Shown: piece after piece, positions 2,535 to 48,140 of the stretch | Numbering within the stretch: the first letter of the stretch is position 1 | Layout of the letters: each line of letters starts with the position of its first letter | From: Hyperoplus lanceolatus | Lineage: Eukaryota > Chordata > Actinopteri > Uranoscopiformes > Ammodytidae | DNA: 64,000 nucleotides | Reading direction: 5' to 3' | Assembly (NCBI GenBank): GCA_026929865.2 | Contig: CM049410.1 | Location: 19,182,001 to 19,246,000, forward strand | Made by a program: the position numbers and the translations under genes | The notes under the pieces: model-generated | The model's input: the letters and a program-made list of their open reading frames with translations, nothing else | Told to the model about the DNA's origin: nothing | The model's database searches: none

Positions 2535-2588
2535 CTATCTCCACACCTGGTCAGTCAAGAGGTAGTTAGCTCACGTGACACAGCCTCC

Positions 2589-4892: not shown

Positions 4893-5532
4893 GCAACCGC
4901 TCATTTCGCTTATGCCTCGGGCCGGCTCTGCTGACCAGTGACCACTATAAGCGGGTGGGTAACTTGGAGGCAGGTTGTCCTGTCCACCCAATAATACAAT
5001 TAGAAGCAATGTATGGTAATGGTATATTCTTTAGTATTAAGTAATTGTTTGAATTTTATTTGACATTTTCTTGGACAGCGAATGAACGGGTCCGTCTGAT
5101 AGTGGGTCTGGACTTCCACCTAAAAACAAATATATATATATATCTATATATATATATATGTTTTTGATTGGGTGGGCACAGCCCACCCTGGCTACCACCG
5201 GTCCTGTTAAGATCCATGATTCAGAATACAGTAGTTAATTGCGTGCTTTGTGTCAGTGCTTGGCTTGAGAAGTGGCAGAGGAAATACACGCAAATACATT
5301 CAAAAGCAGTTATGACCTTGGGCATAAACAAAGCTGTCATGCCAATTGCAAGCAGAATAGACACTCTGCTGCCTCAATGGCCGGGTAGCACAAATAACTA
5401 GCATGTGACGAAGTTCATATTTAAGCATGTGAAACAGTACAATGATGGTTTCTATAAATGGGAACAGACAAATCAACACCAATAAGCTGTAAGAACAAAA
5501 TAAAATAGATTGGAAGTGTTGGTGTCTCGATC

Positions 5533-8500
5533 TCAGAGGTCAGGGAAGTTGTCTTTGCAGTAATCTACAAAGTCGAAGTTCTCAGCAATGAAAGAGACAT
5601 CTTTCCACTTCTTCACAGTCCTTCGGCCCTCAGGAGTGTCCAGGGCAAAACTCTTAATGGCTATGTTGGGCAGCAGGGCGATCTTCTTGTACTTTATCTC
5701 AAATCCCCATTTCTGTAAGTATAAATAAAAATAAGACACACCCCGACATGAGCACCAGCGAGTTTTATTAAAATTTGGTTTACTGTACCATGTTGCAGCT
5801 GCCGTTATTGCAATTGATTGTACGCCCAGGCTCCCAGTCCTCAAAACTCTTCGGTAGCACCATCTGCCCGCCGACTTTGTAGTGTCTCCTGAGAGAAAAG
5901 ACGAGTCATGCTTAGACATTTTGTCTAGACTTCAACCTGAACGTGAAGGACAACTTTTGAACAACAAAGAGTTCAACTCACTTGAAGTCAGGATTGATGA
6001 TGACATGGTGCGCATCTTCAACAATTCTAATGTCACTGCCGGAGGCCACAGGCTTGAAACAGTTTCGACACAAGAGCTTGACACTGTCAGCAGTGTTGCG
6101 ACTGCTCTTCTCCCTTTGACGGCTCTCCGCAACTTTTCTGCAAATAACTGCCTCTTTTTGTAGTGCATTTATCTGGACAGATAGAAAAATAAAAGGTGAA
6201 GGCAGAAACACCAGGCAATGAGAATATGGGATAAAGATGAGAGTGCCACACGCTTACCTTTCTATCAAACTGCTGGAGACTCATTTCTTGCACCTTAGCA
6301 ATGGCCTTTCCAGTCAGCTCTTCCAAACATTCATTGATTAGCTCTCGACGCTCTTCCCGTCCACCTTTCTGCGCGACCACTGAATACTGGCTGTCCGCCG
6401 CTCGGGCACGCCCGGTTGCCTGCTGCTGGGCTATCTCATTTGTAAGCAGTCCATAGCGTACCACCAGGTTGCATTCAGGGATGTCGAGGCCTTCCTCTGC
6501 CACACTGGTGGAGATCAGGAGGTTGAGAGAACCATTGCGGAATTTTCGGATTGTGTCCGCCTGCTCGTTCTGCATGGGACGGAATGCAAATAAAAGCTTG
6601 TAAGTACAAAGTCATACAAAACAGAAGTGAAGTGGTTACTGAATTGGGATGATTTTAAGCCTGTGTAAACCCAAATCCACAAAATCATTCTTACTATATC
6701 ATTTGGGCAATTAGTTGCATGATAGTAAGCATCTTAAAAGAGTAAGGCATATTTATCAATCCAATTTAAGGACTATGTCATTCAAGTTTGATAGACTATA
6801 TAGAAATTCGGTTTAGATGAGGCGGGCTATGCTCAGGTTTGTATGGCATAAGTATTTTCAACCAATCACCACAGTTCTCAGCCTATAAAACAGTTATATA
6901 AAAACAATGTCTGTTGCTATGGAGACCGATTGATATGGCCACACCCACACAATCCTGTCAAATGGTCTACTCTAGAGTCTAGACAGTAAAAAAGCAGTTT
7001 TATGATATTTATGCAATTTTAGTTTCAATCGAGTGTTTGTTAGAGCTTATTGAGACACCCAACGTTTATATCATATATTGTTTTTTACTATTTTAGACTG
7101 GGTTTCCAGAGCTTTTAAGCTCATAAGTTTGGATTTTCAACACACCTGTGTCATGTAGTTGATACCATTGCCGGCCCCTGTGAGGATGGCTGCCTTGATG
7201 CCAGCGTCCTGTAATGCTTTATTATTGAGGACCCAGTCGTTAAGGCAGCGGGTGCTTTTACGGGTTTTACTGAAGAGGATTCCCCTTGATTGCACGCCTG
7301 GACCAAACTGTCTCAGCAAAGTGCTTTCTAGTTTGAACATCTTTGGGTTCTCATAGCGGGCATCCCCTGCCAGTTTCTTCAGCTCCCTCTGATTCTCTGT
7401 GGAAAAGTGATATTAATTATTTTTGCATTGTGAGAAATTGCACTATAGGCTTATCATAACTACAAATCATGCAGGCAAACATACAAATAGACAAGTAACT
7501 AGTATTTCTGGATACCTACCTTGGAAAAGTCCCACCAGGAAGACATCTGTTCCATCAATTTCTGTTTGGGACTTAGCGAGGTAGAACTCCTCAAGGGAGC
7601 TATACGCGTCACTCATTCGCAGCGTGTCATTGATGAGCAGTGCGTCGTTGTACTGTCTGAGGTGGAGTGCACATTGTGCTAGGAGTCTCTTGCCCTTTTT
7701 TACTCCTAAACCAAATATATGCACAATTATGTTTGAGCAATAACAAGCATGTGCTCTTCTTGCTCAAGGGAAGACCGTTAAAACGATGGTGTTCCATCAC
7801 AGGAGGATTTCAAAATGAACTGTGTTCTTACCTTCCTGCTCTAGTAACACCACATCGGCCTCATACTCTTGTGTGCCGCACTCTCTGAGTCTGAAGCCTG
7901 GAGGAATGATCATGTACTCATGGATCAGCTGCATCATCCACTTAAGATGATCCCCAAATGGATCCTAAAAGACAAAAAGTAGTATCTGTGTTGTCGACTA
8001 TCTGTAGGATTTTTTTGTTACAACAAAGTCACAAAGACAAGGTACAAGAGGGGAACAAAATCAGCTTACCTTAGGCCTTTTCTCCACAATGTCAAAAATC
8101 TTCATGGGTCTGGGTACTTTCTTCTTCAGCTCGGAGGTATAGTTTTTCGTTGAAACAATGGCTGAGTCCAGGTTGGCACAAATCTGATACAAAAAGAAAT
8201 ATATTAATTAAGATGACCAAAATAGCAGAGTTGTAGGAGATCAAACAGATCCACTCATATTTGTGACAAATTCAGTAAAAGCTCAAAACTTTTAAAACCC
8301 TGACCTGGAGTACGTGATCCACAGCCCTCTCCAAGATCTTTGCTCCCCCCGTCCCAGGTGATGCAGTGAGACCCAGGATCTGTGGTAACGGCCGTTCTCC
8401 TTTTAACTTTTTCTCAACGTAGCATCCCATTATCTTGTTGTAGACCCCTTCCTTGTGGGTGTGGTGACACTCATCAAATATCAGAAGAGTTATGTCTGTA

Positions 8501-9132
8501 AAGAACCATGAACTCATCAACCGGCCATCTGTATTTTTGGATCTGACTGTCTTACGGTTATAAAGGCAATAAGAAAAAAACTATCCGACATCAATTCTCG
8601 TTTTCTTCATTTAAATCATAATCAAGGATTGTAATGCTCACTATTACTGACCTGAGAGCTCAACATGCTTGTTTTCCTCCTTGTTCATCAGAGCATTATA
8701 CAAGATTTGCGCTGTGCAGATGACCACATCTGAGTCCTGCACCACTTTCCCGAAGAAGTCCTTTGTGTCACTCTCTCCACTGACTGGCACCAGCTTGTAG
8801 TTAGGGCCTAGGTGAGGCTTGAACTCTTTTTTGTAATGTTGGTCTACAAGGTGAACCTACAGTGCAGAAGAGATCAAAATCACGTTGTACCTGGCCTTCT
8901 TTAATATCCAGTTTTTTGTTATTTTGAAACTAACTCTGCCCCATGTTGTATGCATTCTATGTACCTTGTTTACCAGAACCACCACCTTGGCCTTGGATGT
9001 GTTCTCCAGGTGTTTCTTGGCCACATACACAGCAGCACGGGTCTTTCCGCCTCCAGTCGGCAGCCAAATGATTATGTTCTCTCTCTCAAGTGCCCTTTCT
9101 ACCACTTCCTCCTGGTATCCATAAAGTTCCAT
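5533..9132 (-). CDS. dhx58: DHX58 (LGP2) RIG-I-like receptor, tandem copy A
   Basis: LGP2 is a cytosolic DExD/H-box dsRNA-binding ATPase that modulates RIG-I and MDA5 antiviral signalling and lacks CARDs. Coding exons on the minus strand are 9132-8965, 8856-8652, 8495-8305, 8183-8070, 7964-7832, 7705-7520, 7396-7146, 6569-6258, 6172-5982, 5888-5789 and 5712-5533. All junctions are GT-AG and all phases agree. They give 676 residues, close to the family's roughly 680. Motif I is GGGKT (27-31), motif II DECH (132-135), motif III TAS (168-170) and motif [10 protein letters not shown] (466-473). The C-terminal domain keeps zinc-ligand pairs CRNC (555-558) and CNNGSC (610-615). The ATG at 9130-9132 follows an AG acceptor and starts MELYGYQ; it lacks the three codons after Met that copy B has. 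It ends in NFPDL. Exon choices are mine by inspection; the identity is secure. Confidence 0.93.
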
Positions 9133-9368
9133 CCTGTGCTTTTTGCTTGTTTGACAACACATCAGAATGACACAATGTAAGAAGTGGACACTAGGTCATA
9201 CCAGTACATCAAAACTGTCCTCATTAAGACCATATTGTCTTGTTAGATCTGGCTGAAGTTGCTGAGCATAAAACAAACAAGCACTTGCTGAGACAGGCTT
9301 TTTGTTTAATCATTACATCATTTATCCTGAAGCTGTAAGTAAGCAAGTAAACCTTCATTTGAACTCAC

Positions 9369-9420
9369 CGGTCAGCTGTGTGCTTCTGGAGCTTCTCCTT
9401 GTCCACTATGAGTTCACAGT
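9369..9420 (-). other. Likely 5'UTR exon of DHX58 copy A
   Basis: A GT donor lies on the minus strand at 9368-9367 (exon end reading CAGCTGACCG). It would splice to the AG immediately upstream of the start codon at 9132. The same exon-donor arrangement occurs in copy B at 22237. The upper limit is approximate and no transcript evidence is available. Confidence 0.45.
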
Positions 9421-9475
9421 GTAAGTTGAGGGGTTTTTAACCCCTACTGAGATCAGCTGTGTGACTCAGAGAAAT

Positions 9476-9487
9476 GGAAACGAAACC
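9476..9487 (+). promoter_or_regulatory. ISRE / IRF site upstream of DHX58 copy A
   Basis: GGAAACGAAACC is a near-ideal interferon-stimulated response element (GAAANNGAAA core), about 60-100 bp upstream of the inferred 5'UTR exon. ISREs bind ISGF3 and IRFs in either orientation, and DHX58 is a known interferon-stimulated gene. The position and match make regulation by interferon very likely, although this is an inference from motif and family. Confidence 0.7.
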
Positions 9488-9751
9488 AAAAGCCCTCTGA
9501 ACTAAAATTGGCCCCTACTAAGGGAGGCTGTGGAGGGACAATAAATAAGTTAATTATGCAGCGACAGAGCAGGTCTGAGCTACACTGGCATAAAACATTC
9601 ACTCACAATCGCCCTTTTTTATATGGAGCCATGTCTAAACATTTATTTATATTATATCTATAATTACTCTATTAATGGTTTACAGCTTACAGCTGAGGTG
9701 TTTTTGTAAAGAGCATTACATTTCCTGAGTGTTTGCATGGACCTTGGCTCC

Positions 9752-10082
9752 GGGCGACCGTGGCTCAGGTGGTTAAGGGGGTTGGCCAATGATCCAAGGG
9801 TTGGCGGTTCGATCCCCGCTCTGCCACCTGTGTCATGGTTGTTGTGTCCTTGGGCAAGACACTTCACCCACCTTGCCTCGTGTGAATGTGTATGACTGCT
9901 GTATGTTTGAGGTGGTGGTCGGAGGGGCCGTAGGCGCTGAATGGCAGCCACGCTTCCGTCAGTCTGCCCCAGGGCAGCTGTGGCTACTATGGTAGTTTAC
10001 CACCACCAGTATGACTGTGTGTGAATGAATGGAACCTGGAACCCTGTAAAGCGTCTTTGAGTGTCTTGAAAAGCGCTATATA
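9752..10082 (+). repeat. tRNA-derived SINE, 5' part (split by Tc1)
   Basis: The head looks like a tRNA gene: an A-box-like TGGCTCAGGTGG and a B-box-like GGTTCGATCCC about 35 bp later. A conserved body containing CCTTGGGCAAGACACTTC follows, then a 3' end reading AAAGCGCTATATA. That body is common in fish SINEs (V-SINE-like; exact family not certain). The tail continues after the Tc1 transposon, at 11707. Confidence 0.7.
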
Positions 10083-11706
10083 CACTCAACAAAAATATAA
10101 ACGCAACACTTTTGTTTTTGCTCCCATTTTTCATGAGATGGACTTAAAGATCTAAAATTCATTCCAGATACACAATATTACCATTTCTCTCAAACATTGT
10201 TCACAAATCTGTCTAAATGTGTGATAGTGAGCACTTCTGCTTTGCTGAGATAATCCATCCCATCTCACAGGTGTGCCACATCAAGATGCTGATCTGACAT
10301 CATGATTAGTGCACAGGTGTGCCTTAGACTGTCCACAATAAAAGGCCACTCTGAAATGTGCATTTTTTTGCCTTATTGGGGGACTCAGAACCAGTCAGTA
10401 TCTGGTGTGACCACCATTTGCCTCATGCAGTGCAACACATCTTCTCTGTATAGAGTTTATCAGATTGTCAATTGTGGCCTGTGGAATGTTGGTCCACTCC
10501 TCTTCAATGGCTGTGCGAAGTTGCTGGATATTAGTGGGAAGTGATGCACGCTGTCGTATACGCCGGTCAAGCACATCCCAAACATGCTCAATGGGTGATA
10601 TGTCCGGTGAGTATACTGGCCATGCAAGAACTGGAACATTTTCAGCTTCCAAGAATTGTGTACAGATTCTTGCAACATGGGGCCGTGCATTATCTTGCTG
10701 AAACGTGAGGTGATGTTCATGGATGTATGGCACAACAATGGGCCTCAGGATCTCATCACGGTATCTCTGTGCATTCAAAATGCCATCAATAAAATGCACC
10801 TGTGTTCGTCGTCCATAACAGATGCCTGCCCATACCATAACCCCACCACCACCATGGGCCACTCGATCCACAACATTGACATCAGCAAAGCGCTCACCCA
10901 CACGACGCCACACACGCTGTCTGCCATCTGTCCTGAACAATGTAAAACGAGATTCATCCGTGAAGAGAACACCTCTCCAACGTGCCAGACGCCATCGAAT
11001 GTGAGCATTTGCCCACTCAAGTCTGTTACGGCGACGAGCTGGAGTCAGGTCAAGACCCCGATGAGGACGACGAGCATGCAGTTGAGCTTCCCTGAGACGG
11101 TTTCTGACAGTTTGTGCAGAAATTGTTTGGTTATGCAAACCAATTGTTTCAGCAGCTGTCTCAGTGGCTGGTCTCAGACGATCTTGGAGGTGAACCTGCT
11201 GGATGTGGAGGTCCTGGGCTGGTGTGGTTACACGTGGTCTGCGGTTGTGAGGCCGGTTGGATGTACTGCCATATTCTCTGAAACGCCTTTGGAGACGGCT
11301 TATGGTGGATAAATGAACATTCAATGCACGAGCAACAGATCTGGTTGACATTCCTGCTGTCAGCATGCCAATTGCACGCTCCCTCAATGCTTGTGGGATC
11401 TGTGGCATTTTGCTGTGAGACAAAACTGCACATTTCAGGGTGGCCTTTTATTGTGGACAGTCTAAGGCACACCTGTGCACTAATCATGATGTCAGATCAG
11501 CATCTTGATGTGGCACACCTGTGAGGTGGGATGGATTATCTCAGCAAAGCAGAAGTGCTCACTATCACACATTTAGACAGATTTGTGAACAATGTTTGAG
11601 AGAAATGGTAATATTGTGTATCTGGAATGAATTTTAGATCTTTAAGTCCATCTCATGAAAAATGGGAGCAAAAACAAAAGTGTTGCGTTTATATTTTTGT
11701 TGAGTG
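10083..11706 (-). mobile_element. Full-length Tc1-like transposon with long inverted repeats
   Basis: The 1,624-bp element is flanked by TA at 10081-10082 and 11707-11708, the Tc1/mariner target duplication. It begins CACTCAACAAAAATATAAAC and ends with its exact inverse. The terminal inverted repeats run about 280 bp and differ at only a few positions by eye. It encloses an intact transposase gene on the minus strand. Near-identical repeats plus an open reading frame indicate a young, possibly active copy. It lies in the 3' tail of a SINE. Confidence 0.93.
10395..11423 (-). CDS. Tc1-like DD34E transposase, intact
   Basis: A 342-residue single-exon ORF, the usual length for Tc1 transposases, with no internal stop. 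The N-terminal region (about 1-55) is a helix-turn-helix type DNA-binding domain (ALNVHLSTISRLQRRF). An arginine-rich RRPR (GRPR-like) segment and the basic run PARRRNR follow, as in the bipartite paired-like domain and nuclear signal of Tc1 proteins. The catalytic triad is visible: Asp in LFTDESRF, Asp in FQQDNARPH and Glu in SPIEHVWD. Exactly 34 residues separate the second Asp from the Glu. The protein cuts and pastes DNA at TA sites. It lies inside the inverted repeats of the surrounding element. Confidence 0.92.
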   Translation of the reverse strand: MSHSKMPQIPQALRERAIGMLTAGMSTRSVARALNVHLSTISRLQRRFREYGSTSNRPHNRRPRVTTPAQDLHIQQVHLQDRLRPATETAAETIGLHNQTISAQTVRNRLREAQLHARRPHRGLDLTPARRRNRLEWANAHIRWRLARWRGVLFTDESRFTLFRTDGRQRVWRRVGERFADVNVVDRVAHGGGGVMVWAGICYGRRTQVHFIDGILNAQRYRDEILRPIVVPYIHEHHLTFQQDNARPHVARICTQFLEAENVPVLAWPVYSPDISPIEHVWDVLDRRIRQRASLPTNIQQLRTAIEEEWTNIPQATIDNLINSIQRRCVALHEANGGHTRY

Positions 11707-11740
11707 TAAATCCAATCCATTATTACTATTATTACCTCAT
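11707..11740 (+). repeat. 3' tail of the SINE interrupted by Tc1
   Basis: Joining 10082 to 11709 restores GCGCTATA followed by AATCCAATCCATTATTA, an AT-rich SINE tail. The Tc1 element therefore landed in a TA inside this tail. Confidence 0.55.
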
Positions 11741-11984
11741 ATGGGCCTTACCTGTTGTTCAGGAAATCCCCATAGCGATTTCATTGTGATCTTATGTAAC
11801 TTAATATTTTTCACCCTTCTAGTTATTCAGCAACTTTGTGATTTAATTTGCATTATTCATAGTTTTCAGTAAAGTTTAGGTTAGGGTCAGGCTAAACATT
11901 GAAATTAAATTGAAAAACTACTGATAATGCATAATAGTAGGCATTACATTACATGAATATTTTGACGTTATGAAAAATAAGTAT
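11741..11984. other. Intergenic, no feature recognised
   Basis: AT-rich sequence between the SINE tail and the next inverted-repeat element. No ORF, RNA gene or repeat family was recognised. Confidence 0.4.
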
Positions 11985-12934
11985 GGGAGAGTGGCCTAAG
12001 TTGTGCGGTTGGGGAAGTGTGCCATCCCTTGTTTCTAGAAAACCATAGAAGAAATTGCAAATGTGACCACATATTTAAGAAGAGCCATCCATTTGACTCA
12101 TCCAGTAAAGAAGGGAGAAACATGGAATAAGATATAAGCACATTTAAGCTCAAAAAACTGTTTTTTGCCTTTCAAAGTAAAATTTTCATGATCATGGTTT
12201 TTTGATTATTGTGTCTGAACAATTATAGACACGTTTGAAAACATTTGACACATGTTTTAGTGCTTTATATAGTTAGCACGATGTCAGCCCTAAACTCCTG
12301 CATCATGCCTATTATCCAAAATTCTGGGGTTGGGGTGATTTGTGCCAAAGGGCCTATGTGAGTTATAAGTAAGTAAGTAAGTAAAATATATTTATAAAAG
12401 CACATTTATGACAGTTTGCACTGTCCAAAGTGCTATACATAGTGCATTCAGTAGATAAACAATGAAGGTAAAATAACAATAACAAAAATAAAAGACATAA
12501 AGCCCATACATCCACAAATATAAACAAAGATAGTATTGCAGAGGTAAGATAGTTAATGGGGAGGAATAACCAGGGTGTAAAGATGGGTTTTGAGCCTTGA
12601 TTTAAAGGCAGAAATGGAGGGGGAATCACATTTGTCAGGTGGCAGTCACAAGCACGGAGCAACTAGTGCGAAGTACATTTCTGAGAGTTGTGCCAGTGGC
12701 ATGGCTGTATACGCTGGTCACCAAAAAGAAAGTGATTGTCTACAGTAGCTCAGAAGAGACTTACATCTCCATTCCACTTAACGACACCACTGATGAGAGT
12801 TCAGATGGCCAGAAAGATGATAATGGTGACTTTGTCATTGTGAGCTTTGCAGGCAAAACCACATAGATCTGCTAGGCCTTGTTTAAGAAAATTTACCTTC
12901 AATCTTTGTAAAATATTTACTTTATTTACTTTAA

Positions 12935-13536
12935 AGAGGACCTATTATGCTACTTTTCTGGTCTTAATTTCTTGTTTTACACTGCTATAGAGCAACCTGA
13001 CACGAATCACATCACAAAAAACTATGTAGATTTTCGGGAAGCTCTTTCTCTTATTTTGGCGATCCAGCACATCCTGTCAACACTTGAGTTTGTGTGCTTC
13101 GGCTCCCTCCGCCTGTGCTTCGGCCATCTCCGCTCCCCTCCCCCCCTCCTGCAAACCCCACTCCGTTGTGATTGGTTACCTTCCTTCCGGAACACTTTCA
13201 TTGGCGGGAAGCGCGAGCATGGACCTATAAGGGCGCGAGGCAGACGCGAACAGGGAAGTGACAGCATTACCATACATGGAAACATCCGCGTGGAGAAGTC
13301 ACAAAGTTTTATGCGACGTCACAAATTATGAAAGGGTAGACCGCTTTGAAGACGTGACTTCTCGACTGGCTAGAATAGTGTTTAGTGCTCTGCACAGACA
13401 CCCCAGACGGTCAGCAGGGAATATGTCGAAATGCATGTAAGTCATTATTTGATAATTTAGTATGGTTAAGCATGACTATGAATCATCATAACAACGTTTA
13501 TAGGTCATAAAAGTCAAAAAGCATCATAGGTCCTCT
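12935..13536. mobile_element. TTAA-type MITE, copy 1 (AGAGGACCTATTATGC ends)
   Basis: The 602-bp element is flanked by TTAA at 12931-12934 and 13537-13540. It begins AGAGGACCTATTATGC and ends with the inverse of AGAGGACCTATGATGC. TTAA target duplications are typical of piggyBac-like and Kolobok elements; no transposase is present. A second copy of the same family lies at 39510-41053. Confidence 0.75.
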
Positions 13537-13634
13537 TTAAATAAACCTTAAATAAGTAATTGTCTTATGGATTTGTCTTGCATTACAGTTTATGAGATAT
13601 ATATCAATGGCACAATTTACTCCATGGTATTCTC

Positions 13635-13682
13635 TCTTGTGGCACAACTTACACCACACCGGGGGCAAGTTGTGCCACAAGA
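13635..13682. repeat. 16-bp perfect hairpin
   Basis: TCTTGTGGCACAACTT (13635-13650) is the exact inverse of 13667-13682, with a 16-nt loop. It lies inside the 11985-13862 element, so it is probably an internal inverted repeat of that transposon. A Rho-independent terminator is excluded by the eukaryotic context. Confidence 0.7.
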
Positions 13683-13869
13683 CAACTTTTTTTCCGAAAG
13701 CTATATTTCTTAAACAGTTTATTCCAGATCCAAAGTTTTTATTGCCAGGGATGCACAACATCCTGAAATATATGTACATATTTGAGTTGGAGACATAACT
13801 GTCAAGGCCTCACTTTAAAATCACTTTGAGTAAAAAGTTGCACAACGTAGGCCACTCTCCCCTAATAAT

Positions 13870-14562
13870 AATAATACAATTAATTCCTCATGGCACTCCT
13901 TTGGATTTTAAATAAGGTAATAAAGGAACTTTTTTTGCATTCATTTGATTCCTAATCAAGATACACTGGTAAGGATTACTTTACCTTGTTAATATGGACT
14001 TAAAAACTGTTGTGAAATGCAAAATAATAGAATTATAAACAAATGTTAGAAATATGATTAATCACGATTAAACTAAATGAATCGTTGACAGCCCTAATTA
14101 CAATTCATTCTGGGTTTGTCTATACATGATACATCTAAAAATTCGAATTGCCGTCCCTGCGATATACCGTACAAAGATTGGTGAAATAAATATCAAAGGA
14201 TAATGGATGAAGTATAACATAAATATACAACATAAAATGCACTACTTATTATCTTTATCAGTTAATTTACAAGACCCATAAAAAATGTACCAATTATTAA
14301 AACACCTTATTCACCATAAACTGCCTTTTTAAATGGTATGCAATCACTTTGTGGTTGTAAATCCAGTTATAACGGTGTGTGACAGAGAAACGAAACAAAT
14401 TGTAAACCTCTGTGCACTTTGCCTGCTGGAGGGGCCAACTGAGGGAGGTTCCGGAGGGACAACAGTATTTATTATTCAGTGACGGGAAGAACGAAGCCTT
14501 ATACCTGACATAAAGTAAGTCTAACACAAACTTTATAATCTAGCCATGGTTTATATTGTATG
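13870..14562. repeat. Duplicated intergenic segment with an orphan ISRE promoter block
   Basis: This stretch is paralogous to 23205-23605. Shared landmarks include CCTTTGGATTT, TTGATTCCTAATCAAGA and GAGAAACGAAACAAA. Part of it also resembles the DHX58 promoter at 9460-9560 (ISRE, then CTGGAGGGGCCAACTGAGGG-like sequence). The GAAACGAAAC motif is at 14387-14396. No gene body follows on either strand. It looks like a relic promoter of an older DHX58 duplication, now part of the repeat unit. Confidence 0.55.
14387..14396 (+). promoter_or_regulatory. ISRE-like motif in orphan promoter block (unit A)
   Basis: GAAACGAAAC matches the ISRE core. The surrounding 150 bp resembles the DHX58 promoter, but no exon is attached. 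It might act as a distal interferon-responsive element. Confidence 0.45.
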
Positions 14563-16105
14563 CAGTGCCTATAAAGCCATCCTACCCTTTTTTTCTTACA
14601 GCCTGAAATGAAAATAAATAAAATCCATACATTTCCAGGTTTTATACATTTTGCCTTACAACATTAATTTGAAATTTAGTTTTTCCTACATTTCTGAAAC
14701 TTAAAGGTTCAGTAAGCGGAATGGTCAGTTTAGCTAACTTCCTGCAGTTTGCAGTCCTCTCCCTCGTCCCTACGTCACCACATTAATGCACTGTGGTCTT
14801 CAAGCAGTGAGTTATCTAGCATCATCTCAGATAAGTGTGTTAAAACATGATTAAAAACCATCAAAACAGACATTGGGAAGGATTTTTACCTGCTCCGCTA
14901 TTGTAGGCACATAAACATTCACCCATCTGTCGCAATGCGCGTGCACCGGCCGTGAGACGGGTGCCGGTGTGTAGCGTTCTCTCTTGTGATTGGATATCAG
15001 TTTCGGGATCCCCGAAAAGTTTATTTGCCGATTACATGCAGAGCAGATGACTGAGAGATCGGCTTTATGAAATGCACACACTAAGTTAGTGATCACTGTA
15101 TGAATAAAGAGCGATTTAACACTTATATTAACATAAATAAATCGATTACTTCACCTTTAATGAAAAATGAAAATTAGAATAGCAGGGTTGAAAAATTGAT
15201 CTGCCCCAGATGTGATACTTTGTTATATCTAATATGTTGTCTAACCTTCAGTCAAATTCGATGGAGGACTGCACTCTTCAAGTCCGTCACAGATTTTGTA
15301 TGGGGTTTAAGTAAGGGCTCTGACTAGGCATCTGTAGACCATTCACCTTCCTGTCCTTAAATTACTGGTTGTTTTTTGTGTTGTCATGTTGGAAGGTGAT
15401 CCATCTTCAGCTGTCTAGCAGAGGGAGAAGAATTTGGGTGTACAATTGACTAGTCCCTGTTTAAGAGAAACACCCCCACAACAAAATGCTGCTGCCACCA
15501 TGGTTTGCTGTAGATATGGTATTTTGGATTATGCCACATTGCATCAGAATCTCCAAAGAGACAGCCCGATCTAGGCAAGGTTTTGGTGGTGCCGTATGCC
15601 TTCCAATTCTTAACAATTATGGTATTCAGAAAGATAATTAAAGCCTTTCATATTTTTTCATATCCTTCTCTATAACTTGTGCCTATCCACAACTTTGTCC
15701 CAGAGGTCTTTTGAAAGCACATTAATGACCATGGTGAATTGTTTGTGTAACCATTCAATACTAGGAGTGGAATCCTTAAGGAACAGTTGACTTTATTCTG
15801 AAATTGTCAAAACCACTATTTGTCAGGTGGAGACAAATAAACGTATTTTATCCGGAAGGTGATTGCTTGTACCTAAGAATGTTTATGATGGTTATTATAA
15901 GGGACTGATCACTTTTCTTCCAACCCTGCAATTCTAGTTGTTTTTATAATGAATTTTCAGAATTTTTGGGGAACATTTTTCACTTGTATGTTGAAAAAAT
16001 CAAAATGTGTAAATAAAGCTGGAAAGATAATGATTGTATTTATTTCCATTTCAGGCTGTAGTACGAACACAGTGATTATTTCAAAAGGATATGATAAACA
16101 TTTCA
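14563..16105. mobile_element. Degenerate Tc1-like element with a nested MITE
   Basis: The left end (about 14570-14640, starting CAGTGCCTATAAAG, with CAGCCTGAAATGAAAATAAA at about 14600) is inverted near 16040-16080 (TATTTATTTCCATTTCAGGCTG-like). The sequence between has the look of a decayed fish Tc1 element (for example TGCTGCTGCCACCATGG near 15489), but no open transposase remains. A TTAA-type MITE is inserted at 14705-15156. Boundaries are approximate. Confidence 0.5.
14705..15156. mobile_element. TTAA-type MITE nested in Tc1 relic
   Basis: The 452-bp insert is flanked by TTAA at 14701-14704 and 15157-15160. Its ends, AGGTTCAGTAAGCGGA and the inverse of AGGTGAAGTAATCGAT, are imperfect inverted repeats. 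Confidence 0.6.
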
Positions 16106-16234
16106 TAAATAAAATAAAACTATTCCCAGTAAATACCAATTGAAAAAGTGTATCTTGACTTGATTGGCTAACCAGCACTGACACCTGGTGGTTAATCAAG
16201 GCAAAATAATTACAAAGGATTTGTCAGGCACTTT

Positions 16235-16240
16235 TTTATT
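16235..16240 (-). terminator. Poly(A) signal candidate, DHX58 copy B
   Basis: TTTATT on the plus strand is AATAAA on the gene strand, about 300 nt after the stop codon at 16541. It lies inside the flank shared with 159-310, but the copy A version no longer has the motif. Confidence 0.5.
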
Positions 16241-16540
16241 CGAGAGGGGATATGCGGAAAGACACATTTCAATGTAACCATTGACTTATAAAGTAACTTA
16301 ACTTAATTTGAATTTCATCTCAATTTTAGTTAAACGTTAAGTTCAGTTAAAAGTTAAAATACAATAAAAAACTGTAATATGACAGTAGGCCTAAACAAAC
16401 AAGAGAGACATACAACATGTCGCACACAGTTGGAGGAAGCAAAAAATAGGAACAGACATCCAACACCAATAGACTGGAATAACAAAAAAATAAATAGAAT
16501 TAAGAAGAAAACCCCCCACACAGATTCTTTTTTTGGTGTC

Positions 16541-19500
16541 TCAATCAAAGAGGTCAGGGAAGTTATCTTGGCAGTAAACTTCAAAACTGAAGCTCTCAGG
16601 AGTGAAAGGGACATCTTTCCACTGCTTTGCGGTTATCCGGCCCTCAGGGGTTTCCAGGGCAAAATTCTTAATGGCTATATTGGGCAGCAGGGCGATCTCC
16701 TTGTACTTCATCTCATATCCCCATTTCTGTAAATAGAAAAACGTATAAGACAAACCCCAACATGAGTGCGCAAGTTTTTAAATAATTTGTCAGATGGATT
16801 ACCGTACCGAGTTGCAGCTGCCATTATTGCAATTGATTGTACACCCAGCCTCCCAGTCCTTAAAACTCAAACTCATCTTCTGCTCACCGACTTTGTAGTG
16901 TCTCCTGAGAGAAAAGAAGAGCCATGTTTAGACATTTTGTTATGACATTGACTTAAGGCCACTACGAGTAACTTTGTCAGTTGGCGGCCCCTTTGGTCAA
17001 AAGCGGTAGTATTTTTACGACGCCAGCTGTCGTAAAGCTGTTTTCAAGCACGTACCAGCTGTGCAAATGTCAAATGATTAGGACGCAATATAGTGCATGT
17101 CTGTGTGTTGAAAGTGTGAGGGCACCGGACTCTTTTCGGCTCCATGAGAGTGGTTAGTGACTCTGCATCAACTAATGCCAGTCAGTGCCACACACACCTG
17201 ATTGCAATGAGTTGATGCAGGTTCACTAACCACTCGCACGGAGCTGAAATACTCTGTGTCCTCACAGAAAGCGAATGAACGAGAGACGGTAGTTAGTATG
17301 GATCACGATGAGGTAATGTGTTTATGTTGTTGTAAATAATGACTATTTCAGATGAATAATGGTCATCTGATGATGGTGAAGCAAAGTAAACTTTGTTTTA
17401 GTACCGCACCGCTCATTCATTTAGGAGTAAACACTGCAGTTCGCTCCCGTGAAATTGTGTACACGTTGCTTGGCAACGCTTTCCCCCGCCCGTCTATCAC
17501 TCTCCCTTTTAGCTTTTCTTTGTTGCATTTTCTTTTTTTTATTTGATGGTTCAGCCCCGTTATCAGTCATTATGACGACAAATAACTGTCTCAAACAAGG
17601 CTCCCGCTCCCCTTCCCTCACCTGGGTCCTCATTTATAAAGCTTTCTACGCACAAAAACCTTGCGTAGACGGCAGAAATGTGCGGTCAAATGTGCAGTGG
17701 CAAAACGGTGGTATTTATAAAAGAATTCTTTGGAGAAGTGTGCGTATTCCCACGCAAACTTTTGACCATACGTAGAGCTCACGCAAGGTTTTGCTGACTC
17801 GGGGAATCAGCGACACTCAATGGCAACACCACGAAATAAAGCTCTGTCATCGGAAAAACACACATATCCTTGGCACCCAATATATTTAATCAATTATATG
17901 TGCGTACCTATTGTTGCGAATATAGGCTACTGTTGTCTATGGCATGCAGTAATGATGTAGGTTGATTTACTTATCAAGTAGGTCTATACATATTTTGGTC
18001 ATATTTTTAAATTGAATCTTATAGTTCTACTCTATAATAATTTCATATACGTCGGGAGGTGTGTCCCTGTGGCCAGCGGGAGAGCAAATAGTCTATATTT
18101 TAGGCTGTGTGTAAAAAGTAGTTTTGTACAAAGTTAAGGCCAACCATATTAATTAAAACTATATATTTCGTTAGATAAAATCATGTTATGAATTTAGCAA
18201 ATTATTTTATGCATCTCTTTCCCATAACAACTAACCCTCGAAGTTTAAACTATAATCTGACGTTGGAAATGTGTGGATCTCACGGGAGGTAAACAATGCT
18301 TTGGAATATACTATAGGCTAAAGCATTATTTCACTTCTAACAACACATTTTATATAGGCCTACATATAGGCTAGTCCTACAGGTTCGCTAATACGTGATA
18401 TTTCATACAGTACAAAGTTGGGCAAAACAGTTTAACAAAGACTATAACGACTGTGCCAATCATGATATCTGATCAGCGCGTGTGTGTGTGTTTGTGTTTT
18501 AGTGGCAGTTACAGCGACGCATGGCACGGGCTTTCTTCCTTCCCAGTCGCTTTCTTTGTGGCCGGTTACCTCCCTTTTTTCCTCATATCAGTCAAAATGC
18601 TGTGCTTATTAAGTGCGTTATCATATTCAGGAGCTATTTAGCATTCGCCATGTATGGTAGATTGTGGGATGAAACTGGGAGGTGTAGTGGGATGACACCG
18701 GGCGGAGATCGTCCGCTCACAATTCACCGCAGGTGGGTAATTATAAAGGGAAGATTGCGTGCAACTGTGTGCAGCACAGTTTTATAAATCTCAACTTTTT
18801 TTTTGCGCAGCACATTCTTGGCTTTGTGCGAACGCAATGTTTTGGGAAGGTTTCTACGCACACCGTTATAAATGAGGCCCCTGGAGGGATAGGCTTCTCA
18901 AATCGCGTTGCTGCGCTACACTGAAATCTGCGACCAATACGAATATGTGACCATAGAGCCTGCATGCGCAAACCGAAAATCAGACTGGGTGTGCGACCAG
19001 ACCAAATGCAGTAATAAAAACTATATAAAAACGTCTTTCTTTGCACTGATGGTCTCGGTGCTGTTAAAGGTAATTTATGATTATCAGAGGAAACATGAGG
19101 CTGTTTAAAAGATATGTAAATGTTTCTCATAGTGGCTTTAAATTCCTTTGCACGGACAGTTCAACTCACTTGAAGTCAGGATTGATGATGACATGGTGCT
19201 GATTTTCAACAAGTCTAATGTCACTGCCGGAGGCCACATGCTTGAAACAGTTTCGACACAAGAGCTTGACACTGTCAGCAGTGTTGCGACTGCTCTTCTC
19301 CCCTTGGCGGCTCTCTGCAACTTTTCTGCAAATAACTGCCTCTTTTTGTAGTGCATTTATCTGGAGAGACAAGAATAAAAGGTGAAGGCAGAAACACCAG
19401 GCAATGAGAATATGGGATACAGATTAACTGAGATTCACATGCTTACCCTTTTGTCAAACTGCTGGAGGCTCATTTCTTGCACTTTAGCAATGGCCTTTCC

Positions 19501-22006
19501 AGTCAGCTCTTCCAGACATTCATTGATTAGCTCTCGACGCTCTTCCCGTCCACCTTTCTGCGCGACCACTGAATACTGGCTGTCCGCCGCTCGGGCACGC
19601 CCGGTTGCCTGCTGCTGGGCTATCTCATTTGTAAGCAGTCCATAGCGTACCACCAGGTTGCATTCAGGGATGTCGAGGCCTTCCTCTGCCACACTGGTGG
19701 AGATCAGGAGGTTGAGAGAACCTTGCCGAAAATTACGAATGGTGTCCACCTGCTCCTTCTGCACGGGGAAATGTGCAAAATAAAGCTTGTAAGTACTAAG
19801 TCATACGAAACAAACACGTCTATAGATGAGTGGTAACTGAATTGGAATGATTTAAAGCTCAGAGGTAATGATTGTCGGTCATCACACCTGTGTCATGTTG
19901 TTGATACCAGTGCCAGCCCCTGTGAGGATGGCTGCCTTGATGCCAGCGTCCTGTAAGGTTTTATTATTGAGGACCCAGTCGTTAAGGCGGCGGGTGCTTT
20001 TACGGGTTTTACTGAAGACGATTCCCCTTGATTGCACGCCTGGACCAAACTGTCTCAGCAAAGTGCTCTCAAGTTTGAACATCTTTGGGTTCTCATAGCG
20101 AGAATCCCCTGCCAGTTTCTTCAGCTCCATCTGATTCTCTGTGTAAAAGTGTTATTAATTATTTTTTGCATTGTGAGAAATTGCACCATAGACATACAAA
20201 TAGACAAGAAACTAGTATTTCTGGATACCTACCTTGGAAAAGTCCCACCAGGAAGACATCTGTTGCATCAATTTCTGTTTGGGACTTAGTGAGGTAGAAC
20301 TCCTCAAGGGAGCTATACGCGTCACTCATACGCAGCGTGTCATTGATGAGCAGTGCGTCGTTGTACTGTCTGAGGTGGAGTGCACATTGTGCTAGGAGTC
20401 TCTCGCCTTTTTTTACTCCTGAACCAAATATATACACAATTATGTTTGAACATTAACAGAAGCATGTGCTCTCCTTGCTCAAGGAGAGCACAACGATTGT
20501 GTTCCCTCACAGGATGATCAAAAAATGAACTGTGTTCTTACCTTCCTGCTCTAGTAACACCACATCGGCCTCATACTCTTGTGTGCCGCACTCTCTGAGT
20601 CTGAAGCCTGGAGGAATGATCATGTACTCATGGATCAGCTGCATCATCCACTTAAGATGATCCCCAAATGGATCCTAAAAGACAAAAAGTAGTATCTGTG
20701 TTGTCGTTATCATAGCCTCTTTAAAATTGTTTTGATAGCTTAATTTTCGTGTTTGTTACAACAAAGTAACACATACAAGGTACAAGAGAGGAATAAAATC
20801 AGCTTACCTCAGGCCTTTTCTCCACAATTTCAAAAATCTTCATGGGTCTGGGTACTTTCTCCTTCAGCTCGGAGGTATAGTTTTTCGTTGAAACAATGGC
20901 TGAGTCCAGGTTGGCACAAATCTGATACAAAGAGAAATATATTAATTAAGATGACCAAAATAGCAGAGTTGTAGGAGATCAAACAGATCCACTCATATTT
21001 GTGACAAATTCAGTAAAAGCTCAAAACTTTTAAAACCCTGACCTGGAGTACGTGATCCACAGCCCTCTCCAGGATCTTTGCTCCCCCCGTCCCAGGTGAT
21101 GCAGTGAGACCCAGGATCTGTGGTAACGGCCGTTCTCCTTTTAACTTTTTCTCAACGTAGCATCCCATTATCTTGTTATAGACCGCCTCCTTGTGGGTGT
21201 GGTGACACTCATCAATTATCAGAAGTGTAATGTCTGTAAGGAACCATGGACTTGTTAACGGTAAAACCTCAGAAGATTGTGGATCTTACTGTCTATATTA
21301 AGGGAATTAGAAAAAAAACTACCCCACATCAATTAATTTTGTCTTCACGACATCAAAATCATGGATTCAATTTCTCTATATATAAATCATAATCAAGGAT
21401 CTTTATGCTCACTATTACTGACCTGAGAGCTCAACATGTTGAGTTTCCTCCTTGTTCATCAGAGCATTGTACAAGATTTGCGCTGTGCAGATGACCACAT
21501 GTGAGTCCTGCAACACTTTCCCGAAGAAGTCCTTTGTGTCACTCTCTCCACTGACTGGCACCAGCTTGTAGTTAGGGCCTAGGTGAGGCTTGAACTCTTT
21601 GTTGTAATGTTGGTCTACAAGGTGAACCTACAGTACAGAAGAGATCAAAATCACATTGTACCTGGCCTTCTTTAATATCCAGTTTTTTGTTATTTTGAAA
21701 CTAACTCTGCCCCATGTTGTATGCATTCTATGTACCTTGTTTACCAGAACCACCACCTTCTTTAATATCTATTTTCTTATTATTATGAAACTGATTCCCC
21801 ATGTTGAGTGTTTTTTTTGCGTAGGCTACCTTGTTTACAAGAACCACCACCTTGGCCTTGGATGTGGTCTCCAGGTGTTTTTTGGCCACATACACAGCAG
21901 CACGGGTCTTTCCGCCTCCAGTCGGCAGCCAAATTATTATGTTCTCTCTCTGAAGTGCCCTTTCTACCACTTCCTCCTGGTATCCATAAAGTTCTAAATC
22001 CACCAT
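16541..22006 (-). CDS. dhx58: DHX58 (LGP2) RIG-I-like receptor, tandem copy B
   Basis: Second full-length LGP2 gene in the same orientation as copy A. Coding exons are 22006-21830, 21627-21423, 21233-21043, 20921-20808, 20674-20542, 20418-20233, 20138-19888, 19758-19447, 19360-19170, 16904-16808 and 16726-16541. The exon count equals copy A, and exons 2-9 have identical lengths. It encodes 680 residues, with [20 protein letters not shown] and the CRNC and CNNGSC zinc-ligand pairs all kept. It starts [10 protein letters not shown] and ends NFPDLFD. The last two exons are the most diverged from copy A (for example [17 protein letters not shown] against [18 protein letters not shown]). The intron between 19170 and 16904 is 2,265 bp against 93 bp in copy A because of a nested insertion. 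A partial duplication lies at the first donor site. No disabling change is visible, so it is probably a functional gene. Confidence 0.92.
17111..17266. repeat. Foldback (inverted repeat) of ~55-nt arms
   Basis: The arm at 17111-17172 (with GAGTGGTTAGTGA and GCATCAACT) is inverted at 17211-17266 (AGTTGATGC, TCACTAACCACTC), with mismatches. It sits within the 16957-19137 insertion. Confidence 0.6.
17623..18881. mobile_element. Harbinger-like MITE nested in the intron insertion
   Basis: The left end reads GGGTCCTCATTTATAA and the right end is the inverse of GGGGCCTCATTTATAA; both continue into TCTACGCAC-like sequence. It is about 1.26 kb and non-coding. The termini resemble PIF/Harbinger or Tourist-like elements of fish; the target duplication was not resolved. 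Confidence 0.6.
21656..21850. repeat. Partial duplication of exon 1 end and donor in DHX58-B
   Basis: On the gene strand the exon end GTGGTGGTTCTTGTAAACAAG and its GT donor (intron from 21829) are followed 94 bp downstream by a second, very similar GTGGTGGTTCTGGTAAACAAG-type segment and GT donor (intron from 21735). The intron start is repeated too (TTCTTTAATATC twice). Copy A has a single version. Use of the far donor would add 94 nt and shift the frame. Confidence 0.75.
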
Positions 22007-22236: not shown

Positions 22237-22290
22237 CGGTCAGCTGTGTGTTTCTGGAGCTTCTCCTTGTCCACTATGAGTTCACACTGT
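22237..22290 (-). other. Likely 5'UTR exon of DHX58 copy B
   Basis: Same CAGCTGACCG exon end and GT donor as copy A at 9369. The intron would run to the AG upstream of the ATG at 22006. The upper edge is approximate. Confidence 0.45.
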
Positions 22291-22340
22291 AAGTGGAGGG
22301 TGTTTTAGTCCTGTTGAGATCAGCTGTGACGCGAAGAAAT

Positions 22341-22352
22341 AGAGACGAAACC
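22341..22352 (+). promoter_or_regulatory. Diverged ISRE upstream of DHX58 copy B
   Basis: AGAGACGAAACC aligns with GGAAACGAAACC in copy A. The second half-site (GAAAC) is kept and the first (GAAA) is altered to GAGA, although GAAGAAATAGAGA just before it could supply another GAAA. Weaker or altered interferon response is possible. Confidence 0.5.
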
Positions 22353-22359
22353 AAATGCC

Positions 22360-23145
22360 CTCTGAACTAAAATTGGCCCTACTAAGGGGGGCTCTGGAGG
22401 TACGACAGATAGCTTCTTTATTCAGCGACAGTGCAGGCCTGAGTTGCACTGACATCAGACATGTATAATCCCCCCTTTAATTATATAGAGCCTGTATCCC
22501 GTTATCTTTAGTATCTAATTGGTGCCGTAATCAAAGCTATAGATTGGTCCAACAAAATGATGGAGTGGGTGATTTTTTTTTTGTTGGTCGGGCAATGTAG
22601 CCTACAATACACATTTTAAACATTTGTATCAATTAATTTTAGGACTGTCAGTTATAACGCATTAATTTCTTTAATTCGCGTGCTGCTAGGCCTATTTGTT
22701 TACCTTCGACGAACGTTAACGGTCTCTCCTCCGCTCGGAGCTGATAGGTTTCAATCGTGGGGGCATTCACTCTAGTCAAAGTGGGTGGGTGCTTCTTCCA
22801 CTAGCTCCGTTGCATCAGATACAAGGCTTGTTTTGCCGTGTGCCAAAGCATACATGCCATAAATAAAGCACAGAAAAGACGCTTGAGACAGGAAGTCAAA
22901 CACCGAAACAACATTGAACCATCCTGGTACATTTTCAGAATAAAACACTCCTTTTTGATTCCTGGTCGTATTTCACGCTACTACATCAACAAAACGTCAT
23001 AATATGGGAAGCCTGGAGTCAACAGCAGGTGAGGTTTTCAGATTCAGAACCAAGGACGACGAGTAGAAGCTCATCATTGACCCGAAAACCACGTAATTAT
23101 TTTACACACCGCATATCCTTTTTATAAAGTCAAAATGATAATGCA
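22360..23145. other. Upstream region of DHX58-B, repeat-like, no gene
   Basis: TTAGGACTGTCAGTTATAAC at 22641 resembles the common fish hAT terminus ending in GACAGCCCTA; a similar inverse end is seen near 14090 in unit A. No ORF of note. Confidence 0.35.
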
Positions 23146-23149
23146 TAAT

Positions 23150-23210
<61 letters not shown>
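23146..23210. repeat. (ATA)n microsatellite
   Basis: About 65 bp of ATA/AAT trinucleotide repeat between the DHX58-B promoter and the orphan promoter block. Confidence 0.95.
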
Positions 23211-23605
23211 CCAACTAATTCATTGTAGGCCTACTCCTTTGGATTTGAAATAAGTTAATAACTTTCTTTGCATGTAGGCGTATTTGATTCCTAATCAAGA
23301 CACAATGGGAAGATTGGTTAACATGATCAATATGGACTTTAAAACTGTTTTGAAATGCAAAACATAATTTTAAACATAGGACCTTTCATTACCTGTTAAC
23401 ATTATGAGCAATCACTATGTGGTTTTAAATCCGGTTATAATCACCTGCTGTGACAGAGAAACGAAACAAAACCTCTGTGCACCTTGCCTGCTGGAGGGGC
23501 CAACTGAGGGAGGTTGGGGAACAACAGTATAATGAAGCCTAATCACTGACAATAAGTCAGACAAACACAAACGGCATAATCTAGCCATGGGGTTATCTTG
23601 TATAT
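23205..23605. repeat. Orphan ISRE promoter block, unit B copy
   Basis: Paralogous to 13905-14562. It contains GAGAAACGAAAC (23456-23467), CTGGAGGGGCCAACTGAGGG and TCTAGCCATGG in the same order. Homology stops soon after 23605, which marks the likely upper edge of the duplication unit. Confidence 0.55.
23456..23467 (+). promoter_or_regulatory. ISRE-like motif in orphan promoter block (unit B)
   Basis: GAGAAACGAAAC, identical to the motif at 14385-14396. Confidence 0.45.
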
Positions 23606-27291: not shown

Positions 27292-38477
<11,186 letters not shown>

Positions 38478-42805: not shown

Positions 42806-47981
<5,176 letters not shown>

Positions 47982-48140
47982 GGCGTAGTGTGTTGAAGGA
48001 GAGGAACCCGGAGAGAAGAGGGAACGAGTGTGCTTGACTTTAGGTTAAGGCTCGGTGCAGGGGGCTGGTTAAGTGATGGGTGAGAGTTGGGATCAGGTTG
48101 GTAGAAGAGCCAGAGGAAGAGAAGACCTCACCAGTGGGAG
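47982..48140 (-). other. 5'UTR part of the first RAB5C coding exon
   Basis: A good acceptor (TGTTGTTTTCCAG) ends at 48141, so the exon runs 48140-47816 with 159 nt of 5'UTR before the ATG at 47979-47981. Inferred from splice signals only. Confidence 0.6.

What the first reader, a model, noticed from the sequence alone, without database searches (positions are those of the whole stretch)
5533..22006. Tandem duplication of the antiviral sensor gene DHX58 (LGP2)
Seen: two complete 11-coding-exon genes in the same orientation, 676 and 680 codons, each with compatible splice phases and all helicase and zinc-binding motifs. Known: vertebrates normally carry one DHX58 beside KAT2A, and LGP2 tunes RIG-I and MDA5 signalling. 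Inferred: this lineage has two working LGP2 proteins, which could split positive and negative regulation.
Basis: partly seen in the sequence, partly recalled or inferred. Interest (0 to 1): 0.9.

Follow-up and report, generated by a model that had tools for sequence, protein, structure and literature searches.

The report
Twin LGP2 genes swapping helicase sequence
This fish carries two intact neighbouring copies of the antiviral RNA sensor LGP2 whose engine halves have been copied over each other while their RNA-recognising tails drifted apart, a pattern that also shows in cichlid fishes and could let a fish widen what its sensor recognises.

Summary
Two minus-strand dhx58/LGP2 genes lie head to tail beside kat2a: B (22006-16541, 680 codons) and A (9132-5533, 676 codons), each with 11 coding exons, identical phases, helicase motifs and four zinc cysteines. 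An artefact is unlikely: the window lies inside a 30.6-Mb contig without gaps, the copies carry different insertions, and unconverted introns differ by 23%. Exons 1-9 are 94% identical in protein, exons 10-11 (C-terminal RNA-recognition domain) 73%; introns 1 and 3 are 98-99% identical, introns 2 and 10 76-77%. B's intron 1 still holds its old sequence beside an A-identical copy. This is gene conversion on an older duplication. Public proteins show a similar split in cichlids and, weakly, in Scomber and Centropristis, so duplicate LGP2 is not unique to this fish. B has changes at two RNA-contact positions and a damaged proximal interferon element. Family searches found one MDA5 and no third RLR. 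I favour divergence of RNA recognition and induction over a shared ATPase core; function is untested. Closest precedent: mammalian IFIT1/IFIT1B.

The parts
5533..9132 (-). dhx58/LGP2 copy A, start codon to stop, 676 codons. Coding exons: 9132-8965, 8856-8652, 8495-8305, 8183-8070, 7964-7832, 7705-7520, 7396-7146, 6569-6258, 6172-5982, 5888-5789, 5712-5533
   Evidence: families
16541..22006 (-). dhx58/LGP2 copy B, start codon to stop, 680 codons. Coding exons: 22006-21830, 21627-21423, 21233-21043, 20921-20808, 20674-20542, 20418-20233, 20138-19888, 19758-19447, 19360-19170, 16904-16808, 16726-16541
   Evidence: families
21628..21858 (-). Gene-conversion fossil in B: the old, diverged exon 1 end and intron 1 start, followed at 21758 by a second copy that matches A without a difference for about 100 bases and in 129 of 131 overall. 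It brings a second splice donor (exon end 21736), 94 nt downstream, which would shift the frame and stop after 108 codons
7812..7997 (-). Likely conversion tract in A: 186 identical columns crossing intron 4, exon 5 and intron 5
8195..8333 (-). Likely conversion tract in A: 139 identical columns crossing exon 3 and intron 3; one mismatch in the 121-base intron
6327..6533 (-). Likely conversion tract in A: 207 identical columns inside exon 8, whose first 57 bases are diverged (10 of 57 against 6 of 255 mismatches; border chosen after seeing the alignment)
5533..5888 (-). [quoted passage not shown]
16541..16904 (-). Exons 10-11 of B; Ala at the position of human P606 and Gln at that of human K651
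16905..19169 (-). Intron 9 of B, 2265 bases against 93 in A: a long non-homologous block between the homogenised and the diverged part
9369..9600 (-). Promoter and putative non-coding first exon of A (conserved donor, no transcript evidence), with an intact IRF core GTTTCCATTTC beginning at 9481
   Evidence: motif recalled
22237..22480 (-). Promoter and putative non-coding first exon of B; the same element reads GTCTCTATTTC beginning at 22346, one mismatch in the core
   Evidence: motif recalled
13863..14561 (-). Upstream block of the A unit, 75-77% identical in two stretches (14561-14340, 14041-13863) to the block upstream of B; part resembles the dhx58 promoter
23198..23603 (-). Matching upstream block of the B unit
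27295..38000 (-). kat2a exons: bromodomain at the low end, PCAF_N at 36714-37713 (outer bounds approximate)
43760..48044 (-). Ras-family gene, rab5c by its place and sequence (name recalled)

Best explanation
A tandem duplication beside kat2a gave this percomorph fish two LGP2 genes. SHOWN: both reading frames are intact, and much of exons 1-9 with several introns carries near-identical tracts between older, diverged stretches, as gene conversion leaves them (most simply with at least one A-to-B event), while exons 10-11 do not. INFERRED: both genes are expressed. They share one maintained ATPase/helicase core but carry C-terminal domains and promoters that have drifted apart, so the two LGP2s bind RNA ends differently, are induced differently, and cooperate differently with MDA5. 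B is the likelier RNA-binding-altered, less interferon-responsive form. The 2.2-kb block in B's intron 9 probably helps stop conversion tracts before exon 10.
For: Mosaic: introns 1+3 differ at 3 of 229 sites, introns 2+10 at 53 of 226 (p 1e-14; these introns were picked from the two ends of the range of nine, and heterogeneity over all nine is chi-square 86, 8 d.f.); longest identity run among 977 intron columns 116, reached in 0 of 5000 shuffles (for intron 1 the A-like copy of B was the one aligned). Tracts cross exon-intron borders. Old and A-like sequences lie side by side in B intron 1. The ratio of C-terminal to helicase-side divergence is 4.66 for A-B; 0 of 2080 pairs among 65 other fish proteins reach it. 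Helicase domain 1, given the C-terminal divergence: 0 of 773 pairs as low. Cichlids: exons 10-11 unite second-copy proteins of three species (97/86), exons 1-9 reject that (AU p 0.003) and join the two Archocentrus copies (100/99). Constraint: Ka/Ks 0.44. B has Ala where 71 of 71 other fish proteins have Pro and Gln where 64 of 70 have Lys; both positions (human P606, K651 by the alignment) are among five changed in an RNA-binding-defective human LGP2 mutant (PMC10501626, one passage). Promoter difference.
Against: No expression data were available. In exons 10-11 the test does not reject A and B as sisters (AU p 0.153), nor the two Archocentrus copies as sisters (AU p 0.306), so the conflict of trees is carried by exons 1-9 and the window duplication need not predate the family. 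The cichlid groups were named after seeing the tree. The Scomber copies show no conflict: S. japonicus copy 2 groups with S. scombrus in exons 1-9 (100/99). The nonsynonymous:synonymous contrast between exons 10-11 and 1-9 is not significant (30:11 against 35:29, p 0.066), so faster C-terminal change may be only the absence of conversion. In residues 361-480 the window pair is matched by 2 of 773 pairs. Gln at the K651 position also occurs in 4 of 70 other fish proteins. IRF-like matches are common: 13 with at most one mismatch in the window, and a perfect one lies 1.76 kb upstream of B.
Confidence: 0.72

Rival explanations
1. A recent simple tandem duplication with uneven selective constraint and no gene conversion.
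For: Nucleotide identity is 95-100% in each of exons 1-9, and the typical fish pair also has a more divergent C-terminus (median ratio 1.37 over 2080 pairs).
Against: Introns are not expected to be constrained, yet introns 1 and 3 are 98-99% and introns 2 and 10 76-77% identical. Exon 8 goes from 10 of 57 to 6 of 255 mismatches inside one exon. Two versions of one segment sit in B.
Confidence: 0.07
2. Assembly artefact: two haplotypes of one gene laid end to end.
For: Tandem near-copies are a known failure of assemblies (recalled), and a mosaic could come from misjoined reads.
Against: 53 of 226 sites of introns 2 and 10 differ, far beyond usual allelic difference. Insertions differ (intron 7: 576 against 129; intron 9: 93 against 2265). 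No N in the window; the contig is 30.6 Mb.
Confidence: 0.04
3. Neutral dosage: both copies are intact and redundant, conversion is a by-product of tandem arrangement, and C-terminal divergence is drift with no functional split.
For: Conversion needs no selection. The C-terminal Ka/Ks is about 0.62 (my sum of the counts), not above 1. Several low-identity introns are those that differ in length (2, 4, 7, 9), as expected if heterologous blocks simply stop tracts.
Against: The C-terminal side is the diverged side in cichlids too, and Scomber and Centropristis lean that way (1 of 965 and 7 of 745 reference pairs as low in helicase domain 1). Changed sites include RNA-contact positions.
Confidence: 0.3
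4. One reading: one copy has become the positive, the other the negative regulator of MDA5 signalling.
For: A C-terminally shorter trout LGP2b inhibits LGP2a (PMC7582293, passages), and zebrafish LGP2 acts in both directions depending on the dose of poly(I:C) and of LGP2 (PMC9428467, passages).
Against: Nothing I saw in the sequence marks either copy as inhibitory; both keep the full domain set.
Confidence: 0.15

Closest known systems
DHX58/LGP2 of RIG-I-like receptors
   Same: Domain set, length 676-680, no CARD found, zinc cysteines, place beside kat2a; closest listed protein Siniperca chuatsi DHX58, 82%
   Different: Two adjacent intact genes with a homogenised helicase part and diverged C-terminal domains
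IFIT1 / IFIT1B pair of mammals (Daugherty et al. 2016, PMC4887208; passages read)
   Same: Antiviral paralogues in one locus; recurrent conversion homogenises the 5' two thirds, the 3' part diverges, and the C-terminus was proposed and tested as the source of different specificity
   Different: Another protein family and another vertebrate class; here introns and a retained old copy document conversion, while function is untested
Duplicate DHX58 of cichlids (Archocentrus, Pelmatolapia, Oreochromis protein records)
   Different: The duplication looks ancestral to these cichlids and separate from the window's (trees); gene order, distance and introns unknown here
Adaptive change of RLR C-terminal domains after duplication (PMC5101713; passages read)
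   Different: That is the ancient RIG-I/MDA5/LGP2 split, and other domains adapted later; here the same domain diverges within a younger LGP2 pair, without proof of positive selection
Trout LGP2a/LGP2b splice forms (PMC7582293; passages read)
   Same: Two LGP2 forms differing at the C-terminus with different activity
   Different: Made by splicing of one gene, not by two genes

Membership tests
LGP2 (DHX58) | Helicase domains, RIG-I_C and RIG-I_C-RD, no CARD | tested here: met
   both proteins over Pfam cut-offs for DEAD, Helicase_C, RIG-I_C and RIG-I_C-RD; no CARD listed
LGP2 (DHX58) | Closest relatives are DHX58, not MDA5 or RIG-I | tested here: met
   among the 120 hits listed of 3119, those with a specific name are DHX58 or LGP2 (the rest are called RNA helicase, hypothetical, uncharacterized or unnamed, or have no name); LGP2 structures rank before MDA5 and RIG-I
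LGP2 (DHX58) | Four zinc-binding cysteines and DECH box | tested here: met
   both copies
LGP2 (DHX58) | Neighbour of kat2a | tested here: met
   bromodomain and PCAF_N exons between 27 and 38 kb, same strand
LGP2 (DHX58) | Binds dsRNA and modulates MDA5/RIG-I signalling | not testable with these tools
   needs protein and cell assays
Tandem paralogues under gene conversion (IFIT1/IFIT1B type) | Neutral sites alternate between near-identity and old divergence | tested here: met
Tandem paralogues under gene conversion (IFIT1/IFIT1B type) | Converted and unconverted parts give conflicting trees | tested here: inconclusive
   window pair: A+B not rejected in exons 10-11 (AU p 0.153); cichlids: exons 1-9 reject the group seen in exons 10-11 (AU p 0.003), but exons 10-11 do not reject the group seen in exons 1-9 (AU p 0.306)
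Tandem paralogues under gene conversion (IFIT1/IFIT1B type) | Unconverted part carries different specificity | not testable with these tools
   only sequence hints: P606 and K651 positions
Pseudogene or haplotype duplicate | Broken frame, or only allelic divergence | tested here: not met
   both frames intact; 23% divergence in introns 2 and 10

The most novel reading that the evidence does not exclude
In several percomorph lineages that rely on MDA5, LGP2 has repeatedly been duplicated in tandem and is kept as a modular pair: gene conversion maintains one common ATPase engine while it spares the C-terminal RNA reader, so the locus acts as a small diversification cassette for viral RNA-end recognition, an RLR counterpart of IFIT1/IFIT1B.
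Probability: 0.35. Interest if true: 0.8.

Novelty: new variant of a known kind. Interest (0 to 1): 0.62.

Why it matters
LGP2's dual role is an old puzzle. A fish with two natural LGP2s that share a helicase but differ in the C-terminal domain is a ready-made domain swap: comparing them separates what the ATPase core does from what the RNA-end reader does, in a genome where my searches found one MDA5 and no RIG-I. The mosaic also warns that trees of whole LGP2 proteins can mislead orthology in fish, as happened for IFIT1 (PMC4887208, passages). I saw no report of duplicated LGP2 genes in percomorphs, or of gene conversion between them, in the listings of the held library; most listed papers were not opened, and papers outside the library were not searched.

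Tried and rejected
Rejected: recent duplication without conversion (introns disagree); haplotype artefact; further LGP2 coding fragments in the window (tblastn gave only hits with E above 6 outside A and B); a charge difference of the C-terminal domains as an explanation (A +3, B -1; 70 others -7 to +4). The promoter-like blocks at 14.4 and 23.5 kb were first taken for remnants of further genes; they match each other and fit as the upstream part of the duplicated unit.

No structure prediction was asked for, because a spliced protein is not read letter for letter from the DNA.

Rows dropped: the trees used 71 proteins with species names out of those listed, plus A and B; the others (without a name, near-duplicate, or simply not picked) were left out before any count. 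One search dropped seven more (one partial, one near-duplicate, five long-branched); one search used 30 rows picked by name; searches used 65 rows as reference, leaving out the second copies, the Oreochromis row, one partial and one near-duplicate row. Species with two proteins were found in listings of 120 of 3119, 85 of 85 and 120 of 126 hits, so more may exist.
Full report
1. The observation. Six-frame translation put the reading frames on the minus strand. I aligned the two stretches and rebuilt both genes: A 9132-5533, 676 codons; B 22006-16541, 680 codons; 11 coding exons each, same phases, GT-AG at the introns between them. Each protein has the helicase domains, the RIG-I_C domain and the C-terminal RIG-I_C-RD; the best solved relative of A is LGP2; motifs and zinc cysteines are present in both. 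Upstream on the same strand lie kat2a exons and a Ras-family gene. The olive flounder LGP2 paper also reports LGP2 next to KAT2A in humans and several teleosts (PMC3519686, passages). The duplicated unit reaches from just behind the stop codon through the promoter to a block upstream, 14561-13863 for A and 23603-23198 for B.

2. Not an artefact. The window has no N and lies at 19.18-19.25 Mb of a 30.6-Mb contig. Introns 2 and 10 differ at 53 of 226 sites, and some intron lengths differ widely (intron 7, 576 against 129; intron 9, 93 against 2265). Own-genome searches with PF18119 and PF11648 hit only these two genes and one locus on C11, whose RIG-I_C stretch matches MDA5 structures best; CARD_2 is found at that C11 locus and at one place on C14 that I did not identify. 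No third receptor with these domains was seen. Loss of RIG-I is recalled as common in such fish; the searches score only the best candidates, so absence is not proved.

3. The mosaic. Identity between the copies is not even. Per exon it is 95-100% in exons 1-9 and 84-86% in exons 10-11; per intron it runs from 120/121 (intron 3) and 106/108 (intron 1) through 87-96% (introns 4, 5, 6, 8) down to 116/152 (intron 2), 57/74 (intron 10) and 83/120 (intron 7, alignment poor); intron 9 could not be compared. Heterogeneity among the nine introns: chi-square 86, 8 d.f.. Identical runs of 186 and 139 columns cross exon-intron borders; the longest, 207, lies in exon 8, whose first 57 bases have 10 mismatches and the other 255 only 6 (border chosen by eye). 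Selection on protein does not explain this; copying of tracts between genes does. In B's intron 1 the old, diverged end of exon 1 and start of intron 1 survive, followed by a second version that agrees with A in 129 of 131 positions. There the donor was most simply A. The event left B with two splice donors; the second would shift the frame and stop after 108 codons, a possible brake on B. Introns 2 and 10 give a corrected distance of 0.28, introns 1 and 3 of 0.013. With recalled fish rates of a few changes per site per billion years the duplication is some tens of millions of years old and the last conversions are recent; this is rough.

4. The C-terminal domain escapes. A and B share 549 of 583 residues in exons 1-9 but 67 of 92 in exons 10-11. 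The ratio of the two divergences is 4.66; among 2080 pairs of 65 other fish proteins the median is 1.37 and the maximum 2.69. In exons 10-11 A is closer to Siniperca (71 of 93) and B to Chaetodon (71 of 94) than to each other, but a tree with A and B as sisters is not rejected (p 0.153). Synonymous differences are also fewer in exons 1-9 (29 of 388 against about 11 of 52 sites, p 0.0035), as conversion predicts. Ka/Ks, summed by me from the counts, is about 0.33 in exons 1-9 and 0.62 in exons 10-11; the contrast of counts is not significant (p 0.066). I therefore claim escape from homogenisation, not positive selection.

5. Other fish. Two distinct DHX58 proteins with the same listed contig length appear for Archocentrus centrarchus and Scomber japonicus, Pelmatolapia mariae and Centropristis striata. 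In cichlids exons 10-11 unite the second-copy proteins of Archocentrus, Pelmatolapia and Oreochromis (97/86), while exons 1-9 reject that group (p 0.003), also reject Archocentrus 1 with Pelmatolapia 1 (p 0.00002), and join the two Archocentrus copies (100/99). In exons 10-11 the two Archocentrus copies as sisters are not rejected (p 0.306), and the groups were named after seeing a tree. Along the protein the two Archocentrus copies are 100% identical over residues 1-180, 75-87% over 181-360, 97-100% over 361-480 and 70-86% after that. In Scomber, S. japonicus copy 2 groups with the S. scombrus protein in exons 1-9 (100/99), so no conflict is seen there. Given their C-terminal divergence, helicase domain 1 is as similar in 0 of 773 (window), 0 of 192 (Archocentrus), 0 of 872 (Pelmatolapia), 1 of 965 (Scomber) and 7 of 745 (Centropristis) reference pairs; for residues 361-480 the figures are 2, 0, 98, 475 and 74, and for all of exons 1-9 they are 0, 2, 0, 22 and 8. 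Scomber and Centropristis are weak cases. The reference pairs share rows and are not independent.

6. How it may work. The conserved engine (ATPase motifs, RNA backbone grip) is common property of both genes. The tail that reads RNA ends differs. In B, the Pro at human position 606 is Ala (71 of 71 other fish proteins have Pro) and the Lys at 651 is Gln (64 of 70 have Lys, 4 have Gln, 2 Arg) (numbering by the alignment). Both sites belong to five changed together in a human mutant that no longer binds RNA (PMC10501626, one passage); the single effects and these exact replacements were not tested there as far as I saw. The promoter element about 350 bp upstream of the start codon is an intact IRF core in A and has one mismatch in B; LGP2 of olive flounder is IRF3-driven (PMC3519686, passages). 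So A looks like the standard inducible LGP2 and B like a variant in RNA binding and induction. Expression, binding and signalling are untested.

7. Place among known things. Both genes are LGP2 by every feature I could test. The evolutionary mode is that of IFIT1/IFIT1B, where conversion homogenised the 5' two thirds and the C-terminus was linked to specificity (PMC4887208, passages). On the earliest branches after the ancient RLR duplications, adaptation was inferred only in the C-terminal domain (PMC5101713, passages). What seems new here is that this mode operates in an RLR, with a conversion fossil to show it, and probably also in cichlids. I saw no report of it in the listings of the held library.

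Noticed in passing
21736-21858: B carries a second exon-1 splice donor, 94 nt downstream of the productive one, brought in by the conversion tract; its use would give a 108-codon truncated product or decay of the message.
   Followed up: partly
14340-14561 and 23408-23603: Blocks about 62-65% similar to the dhx58 promoter, each with a GTTTCGTTTC stretch, one upstream of each gene: an older promoter duplication or alternative promoter.
   Followed up: partly
10078-11711 and 32734-33612: Mobile element with inverted ends of about 290 bases; the 33-kb copy has a frame that reads like the helix-turn-helix part of a Tc1-type transposase (label recalled).
   Followed up: no
2000-4900: Remains of a LINE-type retroelement with endonuclease-like and reverse-transcriptase-like stretches just downstream of copy A (label from reading the sequence).
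   Followed up: no
G000:C11:16858153-16868904: MDA5 locus of this genome, the only other RLR locus found.
   Followed up: partly
G000:C14:26278883-26279095: CARD_2 match with two stops inside, perhaps MAVS read across an intron or a relic; not identified.
   Followed up: no
residues 575-576 of A: Both copies have His at the second of these places (position of human H576, another RNA-contact site), where 59 of 71 other fish proteins have Tyr, 8 Phe and 4 His.
   Followed up: no
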